NCBI GenBank assembly: GCA_030041035.1
Contig: JASHOO010000246.1
Span: 1-33,866, forward strand
Length of the DNA stretch: 33,866 nt
Source of the DNA: Bryobacteraceae bacterium
Lineage (GTDB): Bacteria > Acidobacteriota > Terriglobia > Bryobacterales > Bryobacteraceae
Reading direction: 5' to 3'
Part shown: positions 18,434-22,356 of the stretch, piece by piece
How positions within the stretch are numbered: the stretch's first letter is position 1
Layout: each line of letters opens with the position of its first letter
Notes under the pieces: model-generated
What the model saw: only the letters and a program-made list of their open reading frames with translations
The model's database searches: none
Told to the model about the DNA's origin: nothing
Position numbers and translations under genes: made by a program

Positions 18434-19450
18434 ATGACCCGCCGGCTCTGCATCTCTAGGTTTGTTGCTGCCGCCTCCCTGCTTCTCGTTTCTCTCTGCC
18501 CGGCGATTCTGCGCGCTGCCGATAAGCCGTCCACGGACACCGATTCCACGGTCGAGATCATCTCCCGGCCCAAACGGCCCGATGCCAAACAGCAGGATGT
18601 GCCGCGCAGTGATATCCGGGTTGATAGCAACTTGGTGCTGATCCCGGTTACCGTGACCGATCCGCTCAACCGCTTCGTTACCGGCCTCGATCGCGAAAAC
18701 TTCCGCGTTTTTGAAGACAAGAGCGAGCAGAAGGTCACTCACTTTGCCAGTGAAGATGCACCCTTGTCGGTCGGCGTGGTGTTCGACATCAGCGGCAGCA
18801 TGGGCAGCAAGCTGGAAAAATCCCGGCAGGCGGTGACCCAGTTTTTCAAAACCGCCAATCCCGAGGACGAATTCTTCTTGGTGGAATTCAACGACCGTCC
18901 GCAGCTCGCCGTGGATTTCACCACGCGTCTCGAGGAGATCCAGAACCGCCTCACCTTCACCCAGTCCCGCGGCCGTACCGCTCTGCTCGACGCGGTTTAC
19001 ATGGCGATGCACAACATGAAGAAGGCCAAGAACCCGCGCAAGGCGTTGCTCATCATCTCCGATGGCGGCGACAACAGCAGCCGGTACACCGAAAGTGAGG
19101 TTAAAGGCCGGGTACGCGAGGCCGACGTTCAAATCTATGCGATCGGTATCTTTGAACCGGTCGCCAACCGTGGCCGGACGCCGGAAGAGATGGCCGGCCC
19201 GAGTTTGCTCAGCGAAATCTCGGAACAGACCGGGGGACGCAGTTTCCAGGTGGACAACTTGAACGAATTGCCCGACGTGGCAGCCAAAATCGGCGTCGAA
19301 CTGCGCAATCAGTATATTTTGGGTTATACCCCGACTAACCTGGAGCCAGACGGCAAGTATCGCAAAGTCCAGGTAAAACTGGTGCAGCCGCGCGGCCTGC
19401 CTCCCCTGAGGGCGTCCTGGAGGCTTGGCTATTATGCTCCGACGCAGTAA
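18434..19450 (+). CDS. Secreted VWFA-domain protein, acidobacterial type (1)
   Basis: This 338-residue protein has a signal peptide (about residues 1-29, ending ILRA-AD). A short Ig-like region (about 60-105, with the FRVFED strand) precedes a von Willebrand A domain (about 110-300). The metal site is complete: DISGS (D118, S120, S122), T181 in GRTALLD and D209 in ISDGGDN. It matches the VWFA-related domain family named for Acidobacteria (TIGR03436, from memory). It ends in a conserved RNQYILGYTPTN...YRKVQVKL...GYYAP block. The role is unknown, probably an adhesion or assembly function in the periplasm or at the cell surface. It overlaps the next, paralogous gene. Confidence 0.92.
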   Translation: MTRRLCISRFVAAASLLLVSLCPAILRAADKPSTDTDSTVEIISRPKRPDAKQQDVPRSDIRVDSNLVLIPVTVTDPLNRFVTGLDRENFRVFEDKSEQKVTHFASEDAPLSVGVVFDISGSMGSKLEKSRQAVTQFFKTANPEDEFFLVEFNDRPQLAVDFTTRLEEIQNRLTFTQSRGRTALLDAVYMAMHNMKKAKNPRKALLIISDGGDNSSRYTESEVKGRVREADVQIYAIGIFEPVANRGRTPEEMAGPSLLSEISEQTGGRSFQVDNLNELPDVAAKIGVELRNQYILGYTPTNLEPDGKYRKVQVKLVQPRGLPPLRASWRLGYYAPTQ

Positions 19451-20387
19451 ATTCAAAGGATTGACCATTTCTCACGCAAAATATCTTTTCCTGCTGCTGA
19501 CCGCTGCTGGCTCGCTCGCAGCCCAGAAATCCGACGACACCCCCACGTTCCGCACCGATACCAGGTTGGTAGTCCTGCATGTCACGGTGGTGGATAAGAA
19601 CGGCCGCCTGATCACCACGCTTCCGGAAAGTGCTTTCCGCGTTTTCGAAAACGGTGTCCCCCAACAGGTCAAGCTCTTCAAGCGCGAGGACGTCCCCGTG
19701 TCGATGGGCCTGATTATCGATAACAGCGGCAGCATGCGCGACAAACGGCAGAAGGTGGCTGCCGCGGCGGTGGCCCTGGTAAAGGATTCGAACCGGGAAG
19801 ATGAAGCCTTCGTCGTCAACTTCAACGACGACGCTTACCTCGACTGCGATTTCACCAACAACGTCGAGAAGATGGATCAGGCGCTCAGCAGAATCGACTC
19901 CCGCGGCGGAACCGCTATGCGCGAGGCCATCAGCATGTCCATCGACCACATGAAGGAAAAAGCCAAGAAGGATAAGAAGGTGATTCTCGTGGTAACTGAT
20001 GGCAACGACAACGCCAGCACCATCTCCCTCGAGAATCTGGTGAAGAAGGCACAGCAGAGCGAGGTCATCATCTACGCCGTCGGTCTGCTCAACGAAGAGG
20101 AGAAGCGCGAAGCTCACCGGGCCAAGCGCGCCCTCGACCTGCTGACCGAAGCGACCGGCGGCCAGGCTTACTATCCGAAAGAGCTGGCGGACGTGGAGCG
20201 TATCGCCCATCAACTGGCTCACGACATCCGGAACCAGTACATCATCGCCTACACACCGGCCACCCTGGATGGGTCATTCCGCCAGATTCGCGTTGTGGCC
20301 AGCGGCCCGGGCCATCCCACGGCGAGAACGCGCACCGGCTATTACGCCACGCCCGATGCCGTCTCCAAGACCAACAGCGGCCAGTAG
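19434..20387 (+). CDS. Secreted VWFA-domain protein, acidobacterial type (2)
   Basis: This 317-residue paralogue of the preceding gene has a signal peptide (about residues 1-30, ending SLAAQ), the FRVFENG strand, a VWA domain with complete metal site (DNSGS, GGTAMREA, TDGND) and the same C-terminal block (IRNQYIIAYTPA...FRQIRVVA...GYYATP). I chose ATG 19434, which overlaps the first VWFA gene by 17 bases and has GGAGG upstream; a TTG nine bases earlier is possible. A region of about 25 Lys/Glu residues (MKEKAKKDKK, NEEEKREAHRAKR) is inserted relative to the first copy. The two likely arose by tandem duplication. Confidence 0.92.
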   Translation: MLRRSKFKGLTISHAKYLFLLLTAAGSLAAQKSDDTPTFRTDTRLVVLHVTVVDKNGRLITTLPESAFRVFENGVPQQVKLFKREDVPVSMGLIIDNSGSMRDKRQKVAAAAVALVKDSNREDEAFVVNFNDDAYLDCDFTNNVEKMDQALSRIDSRGGTAMREAISMSIDHMKEKAKKDKKVILVVTDGNDNASTISLENLVKKAQQSEVIIYAVGLLNEEEKREAHRAKRALDLLTEATGGQAYYPKELADVERIAHQLAHDIRNQYIIAYTPATLDGSFRQIRVVASGPGHPTARTRTGYYATPDAVSKTNSGQ

Positions 20388-21730: not shown

Positions 21731-21927
21731 TGAAATGAGGAGCGAGCCCCAGCCTCTGTTTTGGCACATTCGCGGGTTGCTGTCGAGTCCGGCGGCAGTG
21801 CGCTATATCTGTGTCCCTCTGCGAAGCTGAAAGTTTATTGTACGCTCGTTTGCTATTTCGATCCTCTGTTCGCGCCTTACTAGACAGAGGCCAAAAGACA
21901 ACGGCCAAATTGAAGAGGAGAAAAGAC

Positions 21928-22083
21928 ATGAGCGAACAGACAAAGTCAAAAGGCAGTTCGGAAGAACTCACAAAAGAGCAGCTGGAAGGTGTTTCTGGTG
22001 GCTCATTCGATATAATTGCCGGTGTGGCACAACCGATAAAACCGCCCGCGGACCCCTTGGGGGAAACATTAACCTTAAATTAG
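21928..22083 (+). CDS. Putative double-glycine-leader peptide precursor (bacteriocin/RiPP-like)
   Basis: This 51-residue peptide begins MSEQTKSKGS and contains EELTKEQLEGVSGGS, the E-L-x2-E-x-L-x-x-V-x-GG pattern of leaders cut after Gly-Gly (residues 24-25) by C39-peptidase ABC exporters. The predicted core, residues 26-51, starts SFDIIAGVAQP and has no Cys, so no lanthionine or disulfide is possible; it is rich in Pro and small residues. A strong AGAGGAG ribosome site lies 7-13 bases before ATG 21928. No exporter, maturation enzyme or immunity gene is visible within the window. It could instead be a short signalling or structural peptide using the same exporter. Confidence 0.65.
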   Translation: MSEQTKSKGSSEELTKEQLEGVSGGSFDIIAGVAQPIKPPADPLGETLTLN

Positions 22084-22086
22084 ATG

Positions 22087-22101
22087 GGGGTAATTTACCC
22101 C
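22087..22101 (+). terminator. Weak hairpin after the double-glycine peptide gene
   Basis: GGGGTAATTTACCCC can form a 6-7 base-pair stem with almost no loop right after the stop codon. The bases that follow are CTTCCC, not a run of T, so it is not a standard intrinsic terminator, though it could slow polymerase or protect the mRNA end. Confidence 0.25.
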
Positions 22102-22356
22102 TTCCCGAAACCGAAGCAGCCTAGAGGTTGATGGATTCAGGCTGATTGAGGGCTGACCACACCGTTATCCGCGGGTGAATAGTCGGTGGACGGTCCCATT
22201 ACGCTGCTTCGAGCAGTTGGCGCAAACTTCTGGCGGCCCGCACTTGCGAGGCCGCCACCAAGAGGGACTCAGAATTAGGGCACTACCAGGCCCGCGGTAA
22301 TGTTGCCATAGTGAGGACAACAGCACCAGGCCCGCGTGTTGTGGCTGAGACGACCG

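What the first reader, a model, noticed from the sequence alone, without database searches (positions are those of the whole stretch)
21928..22083. Orphan double-glycine-leader peptide precursor
EELTKEQLEGVSGG fits the leader of peptides cut by C39-peptidase exporters. The core of 26 residues has no Cys, and the ribosome site is strong. No exporter or modifying enzyme is in the window. It could be a bacteriocin, a signalling peptide or a member of a dispersed peptide family in this phylum.
Basis: partly seen in the sequence, partly recalled or inferred. Interest (0 to 1): 0.65.

Follow-up and report, generated by a model that had tools for sequence, protein, structure and literature searches.

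The report
Scattered precursor gene for exported peptide
This soil-bacterium gene very probably encodes a small peptide that is clipped after two glycines and pumped out of the cell by a single exporter encoded elsewhere in the genome, and it is one of a scattered set of such genes that share the export tag but carry different cargo.

Summary
ORF 21928-22083 (+) encodes a 51-aa peptide: a 25-aa leader ending in GG and a 26-aa Cys-free core, behind an AGGAG site. It is more than chance: a leader model built without it scores it 28.0 bits, against 12.6 for the best frame in 200 window-sized shuffles. The genome holds at least 15 such intact ORFs, scattered over its contigs. Leaders are conserved, cores are not. 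The genome has one NHLM-type exporter, split over two contigs, with no such precursor beside it. In two same-family genomes (G022, G033) short-leader relatives lie about 5 kb from this exporter's C39 gene, and in a third (G071) beside its HlyD gene. In 396 genomes of the phylum, 10 of 11 genomes with a leader match have the exporter (Fisher p 9e-13); most of those other matches are long-leader (NHLP-type) precursors. Best reading: an orphan, short-leader substrate of an NHLM exporter acting in trans. Mechanism well supported by genomics; the released peptide's function (bacteriocin-like or signal) is not established. A new variant of a known kind.

The parts
21850..21894 (+). upstream block shared with a paralogue's upstream region (probable promoter / 5' UTR, duplicated with the gene)
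   Evidence: local alignment with the region upstream of the C583 paralogue: score 43 against a maximum of 22 in 200 shuffles, z 13.3; blastn 75% over 92 bp, E 3e-8
21916..21920 (+). ribosome-binding site AGGAG
   Evidence: sequence; 15 of 16 precursors with an ATG have such a site, against 96 of 953 ATGs in the window
21928..22083 (+). precursor peptide gene, 51 codons plus TAG
   Evidence: DNA paralogue on C612, 79.5% over 83 bp, E 1e-12
21928..22002 (+). leader of 25 aa ending in GG
   Evidence: leave-one-out profile score 28.0 bits; leader z > 3 in 65 of 66 pairs
22003..22080 (+). core peptide of 26 aa, predicted to be released after GG
   Evidence: position relative to GG; no significant relative among 13 other cores compared (best nominal p 0.04)
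22087..22101 (.). perfect palindrome GGGGTAA-T-TTACCCC just after the stop, possible terminator
   Evidence: listed as terminator-like on the - strand; no T run follows it on the + strand

Best explanation
It is an orphan precursor of an exported peptide. The 25-aa leader is an export tag. The C39 peptidase domain of the cell's single NHLM-type ABC exporter, encoded elsewhere, binds the leader, cuts after GG, and the ABC/HlyD (and presumably a TolC-like) channel secretes the 26-residue core. The gene is one of about 15 intact, scattered genes with a common tag and different cores, some duplicated together with their upstream region, so one exporter serves many peptides in trans. Shown: gene, paralogy, exporter genes, co-occurrence and linkage in relatives. 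Inferred: cleavage, export, and that the core leaves unmodified. Role of the core: antagonism of neighbours (bacteriocin-like) about 0.45, signalling about 0.3, other about 0.25; these are judgements.
For: Leave-one-out score far above shuffles. At least 15 intact ORFs with ATG and SD in the same genome out of 22 profile matches. Leader alike in 65 of 66 pairs, core in 3 of 66, the pattern expected if selection acts on the tag. One exporter: HlyD 333.6 bits (cut-off 156.2), cNMP protein 162.7 (161.05), C39-ABC split as 451.8 + 539 (model positions 1-330 and 352-709), second ABC 831.3 (709.4). The Cys, His and Asp stretches of the C39 domain align with PDB 6mpz (the triad is recalled). Same-locus relatives in G022 and G033, 5.1 and 5.5 kb from the C39 gene, and in G071 beside an NHLM HlyD. 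Phylum: 10 of 11 genomes with a leader match carry the exporter against 24 of 396 overall.
Against: No cleavage or secretion data. The genome's precursors are not linked to its exporter: 0 matches in 118 frames of C414 and 392 frames of the first 16 kb of C175. Congeners G001 and G002 have neither peptide nor a C39 match under 1e-30. The core has no clear relative. The P0001 search alone gave paralogues only at E 0.2-1.4. The phylum hits outside the family match mainly through the GG end of long NHLP-type leaders, so they support the tag-exporter link, not the short-leader family. G038 and G041 have NHLP-like matches but no C39 match; of the 24 exporter genomes 14 had no leader match.
Confidence: 0.78

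Rival explanations
1. A RiPP: the core is chemically modified by an enzyme acting in trans before export, as in dispersed prochlorosin-type systems.
For: A RiPP C-methyltransferase of the radical-SAM type (TIGR03975, 556 bits) is in the genome on C107, flanked by two other GG precursors. A Cys-rich protein of unknown function sits beside short-leader peptides in G022, G033 and G071.
Against: The C107 precursors have a different, longer leader. The Cys-rich protein has no match in this genome (0 for G000). The core lacks Cys, so no lanthionine from its own residues. Whether other RiPP enzymes exist in the genome was not searched.
Confidence: 0.2
2. A decaying or non-expressed duplicate: a relic spread by duplication, no longer exported.
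For: Two of the matches in the genome are frameshifted (C612, C376c). The core is unconserved and the locus is variable between congeners.
Against: The window copy has an intact frame, SD and conserved upstream block. One core pair is conserved between the genera of G022 and G071 (z 8.4), so cores in this family can be under selection.
Confidence: 0.12
3. A chance ORF with a leader-like string.
For: Short, no library hit over cut-off.
Against: (28.0 against 12.6 bits in shuffles), DNA-level paralogues, shared upstream block.
Confidence: 0.02

Closest known systems
NHLP / Nif11-type precursors with the NHLM three-gene exporter (Haft, Basu & Mitchell 2010, PMC2887384; passages and sections 6 and 12 read)
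   Same: Same exporter families (TIGR03794, TIGR03796, TIGR03797); GG at the leader end; variable core; precursor genes may lie far from export genes; the paper itself notes that the exporter is more widespread than NHLP and should reveal more precursor families.
   Different: The window leader is 25 aa and has no NHLP or Nif11 match; the paper gives mean GG positions of 83 and 70.
Class II bacteriocin / TIGR01847-type double-glycine leaders; Pfam PF10439; consensus of Dirix 2004 as quoted in PMC3140520 (passages read)
   Same: Leader length (about 24 in TIGR01847 according to PMC2887384) and GG motif; weak match to Bacteriocin_IIc (13.3 bits).
   Different: Under every curated cut-off; no adjacent exporter; no immunity gene recognised.
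CTB family bacteriocin NF038167 (the model name 'cyan_ocin_like' suggests cyanobacteria)
   Same: Nearest whole-leader model: 15.6 bits for the window, 28.4 for one G022 peptide.
   Different: Cut-off is 32 bits; not met.
Prochlorosins (recalled; mentioned in the PMC10783134 abstract in the listing)
   Same: Many precursors served by shared machinery.
   Different: Nif11-type leaders and a promiscuous lanthionine synthetase; the window leader is not of that type.

Membership tests
Double-glycine-leader exported peptide (broad kind) | short leader with GG at -1/-2 and hydrophobic -4, -7, -12 | tested here: met
   sequence, leader profile
Double-glycine-leader exported peptide (broad kind) | C39-peptidase exporter in the genome | tested here: met
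Double-glycine-leader exported peptide (broad kind) | cleavage after GG and secretion | not testable with these tools
   needs protein and mass spectrometry
NHLM exporter (the genome's exporter) | HlyD TIGR03794, C39-ABC TIGR03796, ABC TIGR03797 | tested here: met
   TIGR03794 and TIGR03797 over cut-off; TIGR03796 in two pieces on two contig ends, neither over 853.3 alone
NHLP precursor (TIGR03793) | nitrile-hydratase-like leader | tested here: not met
   no TIGR03793 match for P0001 at E <= 10
Nif11-type precursor (TIGR03798) | Nif11 leader | tested here: not met
   no match for P0001 at E <= 10
CTB family bacteriocin NF038167 | score over 32 bits | tested here: not met
   15.6 bits
Class II bacteriocin (PF10439 / TIGR03949) | score over cut-off | tested here: not met
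   13.3 against 27.1; 15.8 against 21.5
Class II bacteriocin (PF10439 / TIGR03949) | killing activity and an immunity protein | tested here: inconclusive
   neighbours by reading are a DUF58-like ORF and a 108-aa ORF, none recognised as immunity; activity not testable

The most novel reading that the evidence does not exclude
An acidobacterial family uses one NHLM exporter as a common outlet for a set of scattered short-leader peptide genes, copied with their upstream block and carrying interchangeable cargo, that is, a substrate class for NHLM exporters without the NHLP/Nif11 domain. In relatives the set is clustered with the exporter and with an undescribed Cys-rich protein that may bind or mature the peptides.
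Probability: 0.45. Interest if true: 0.62.

Novelty: new variant of a known kind. Interest (0 to 1): 0.48.

Why it matters
NHLM exporters are more widespread than the precursors assigned to them (PMC2887384). This links them to a short-leader class that curated models score under cut-off, and gives a concrete, testable one-exporter, many-cargo system in a group of soil bacteria. Such peptides lie outside exporter-centred gene clusters, so cluster-based mining would overlook them.

Tried and rejected
P0001 as a single query was too short to prove paralogy (E 0.2-1.4), so a leader profile was built. A DNA pattern search was mis-built (one N missing) and says nothing. Four further PF03412 matches in the genome were rejected as exporters: no ABC domain was seen by reading, and on three of the four contigs (C252, C326, C602) VgrG-like ORFs lie nearby (not scanned against HMM libraries). 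The Cys-rich neighbour protein of relatives was considered as a maturation enzyme for the window peptide and set aside because this genome has no match. An AlphaFold model of it was useless (mean pLDDT 32.6). Its resemblance to PF03692 is under cut-off (E 0.17 and 0.058 in 2 of 4 proteins); a PqqD-like C-terminus was only seen by eye. The RNA hit RF02552 at 22159-22261 (23.4 bits against 60) is taken as chance. No tblastn match in plasmids or phages. No related solved structure of the peptide (best E 0.99). A shared promoter element across all subfamilies was looked for by eye; only pairs inside subfamilies were clearly above shuffles.

Of the 22 profile matches in the genome 15 were counted as intact. 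Dropped: a second GG in the same ORF (C583), two frameshifted (C376c, C612), one without Met (C442), one without SD (C582), two inside long frames (C367, C470). Among the 15, C215 runs off its contig and C384 ends in GA rather than GG.

Papers: PMC2887384 (passages, sections 6 and 12), PMC3140520 (passages); all others only search listings with abstract beginnings. Those seven searches listed no paper that by title or abstract beginning deals with short-leader GG precursors in Bryobacteraceae; subscription papers are not held.

Full report
What is there. Window 21928-22083 (+) is an intact 51-codon frame with AGGAG at 21916-21920. The product splits at GG into a 25-aa leader and a 26-aa core without Cys. 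Library models recognise only the leader end and all stay under cut-off: Bacteriocin_IIc 13.3 of 27.1 bits; CCRG-2, lactobin/cerein and CTB-family models 16.3 of 24, 15.8 of 21.5, 15.6 of 32.

Is it more than chance? A profile from 12 leaders, none from the window, gives this frame 28.0 bits (E 8e-8 among 749 frames); 200 first-order Markov resamplings of the window (182,902 frames) reach at most 12.6. At DNA level the gene has paralogues: C612, 79.5% over 83 bp (E 1e-12), and C583, 75% over 92 bp that includes the upstream block 21850-21894 (alignment z 13.3). The C612 copy is frameshifted in its leader.

The set in this genome. The leader profile A1 (which contains the window leader as one of nine rows) finds 22 matches at E <= 10. 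Fifteen are intact ORFs with an ATG and an SD-like site (exclusions in Tried and rejected). In 15 of 16 candidate starts an SD-like site is present, against 96 of 953 ATGs of the window. Over 12 precursors (7 own, 5 from G022, G033 and G071; 66 pairs) leaders are alike in 65 pairs (z > 3, mean 5.9) and cores in 3 (mean 0.0). The 12 were picked for their short leaders; the longer-leader class was left out of this comparison. The window core has no convincing relative among 13 cores compared (best nominal p 0.04, G033a). One pair of cores from two genera (G022c and the G071 C768 peptide) is conserved, z 8.4, so at least some cores are under selection.

The exporter. PF03412 finds five places. 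One (C414) is a C39-ABC gene that runs off its contig; C175 begins with the rest. With neighbours they form the NHLM set: cNMP-binding 162.7 bits (cut-off 161.05), HlyD 333.6 (156.2), C39-ABC 451.8 and 539 in two pieces (853.3 for the whole), second ABC 831.3 (709.4). That C414 and C175 adjoin is inferred from the two halves. The C39 domain aligns over its length with PDB 6mpz, with the Cys, His and Asp stretches kept (their catalytic role is recalled). No leader match lies in C414 or in the first 16 kb of C175. So exporter and precursors are both orphans and would work in trans.

Relatives. In 61 genomes (own included), A1 matches (E <= 0.05) occur in G000, G022 and G033 of 37 family members, and weakly in G038 and G041 of another family; the latter two are long, NHLP-like leaders by eye in genomes without a C39 match. 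C39 matches under 1e-30 occur in five of the 37 (G000, G022, G029, G033, G035), which include all three (Fisher p 0.0013). In G022 and G033 peptides and C39 gene are 5.1 and 5.5 kb apart. G022 is PMTR01000021, a Bryobacterales MAG, which places the window's family; G033 bears a different title (VFZE01000006, Acidimicrobiia). In the whole family 6 of 237 genomes match A3 at E <= 0.01: four strongly (G000, G022, G033, G071) and two weakly (G035, G676). G071 carries four GG frames between an NHLM HlyD / outer-membrane-protein-like pair and the Cys-rich protein, two of them weak. G676 was not tested for an exporter.

Phylum. In 396 genomes drawn from the phylum, A3 matches 11; the C39-ABC family is over cut-off in 23, and G000 makes 24 when its split gene is counted. 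Ten of the 11 are among these; the exception, G360, matches inside a long frame and looks false. Fisher p 9e-13 with the window's genome, 1.3e-11 without. Seven of the nine non-own pairs are on one contig, 4.1-14.6 kb apart. Caution: most of these matches are the GG ends of long leaders; of those, one (G170) was scanned and is NHLP over cut-off (68.9 of 50.9 bits). The test therefore supports the link between this kind of leader end and this exporter, not a phylum-wide short-leader family. Genomes are not independent of descent, so p values overstate the case.

Locus history. In the congeners G002 and G001 the DUF58-like gene and a relative of the 108-aa ORF that flank the peptide are present, but the space between holds other ORFs (ABC-transporter-like genes in G002; a 469-aa ORF in G001, by reading) and no peptide. 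The peptide gene has 45% GC at third positions against 73-77% in three neighbours. Gain of a cassette in a variable spot fits both (inference).

How it works. Inferred from the above and from established C39-exporter biology: leader binding, cut after GG, secretion of a 26-mer. Nothing here shows what the 26-mer does. No immunity gene and no receptor were recognised nearby; the cores of the own set differ in length (5-42 aa) and charge.

Against. No experiment; lack of linkage in this genome; draft assembly of 780 contigs, in which a missing cluster or the Cys-rich protein could hide; core not conserved; 14 of 24 exporter genomes without a leader match.

Novelty. Exporter, GG tag and distant precursors are known (PMC2887384). 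The short leader without NHLP or Nif11 domain, dispersed copies with their upstream block and a single NHLM exporter in this family were in none of the paper listings.

Noticed in passing
L061:5974-8182 (C107); also C416 and C746: GG precursors with a different, longer leader (KLTIRLTEDQQKQIKxATGKSITELNIDL) and cores of only 6-10 aa; on C107 two of them flank a radical-SAM RiPP C-methyltransferase (TIGR03975, 556 bits).
   Followed up: partly
L108:15180-16277 (-), L109:14783-15853 (+), L157:4387-5433 (+), L158:382-1368 (+): Cys-rich protein of about 350 aa without Pfam or NCBIfam match over cut-off, beside short-leader GG peptides in three of the four genomes that have it (of 151 searched).
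   Followed up: partly
L054 (C583:2720-2902) and L052 (C376:1591-1802): A precursor with two successive GG leader segments in one frame (C583); a similar arrangement on C376 is broken by a frameshift.
   Followed up: no
L066-L069 (C438, C252, C326, C602): Four C39-like ORFs without a visible ABC part; on C252, C326 and C602 VgrG-like ORFs lie nearby, and a similar ORF of about 195 aa precedes the C39-like one on C326 and C602.
   Followed up: no
window 18434-20387: Two adjacent, related ORFs that look like von Willebrand A-type proteins, next to a DUF58-like gene (by reading).
   Followed up: no
window 22087-22101: Perfect 7-bp palindrome GGGGTAA-T-TTACCCC right after the stop codon.
   Followed up: no
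L190 (G071:C768) and L108:14202-14489: Two short-leader peptides from different genera share a recognisable core (z 8.4).
   Followed up: partly
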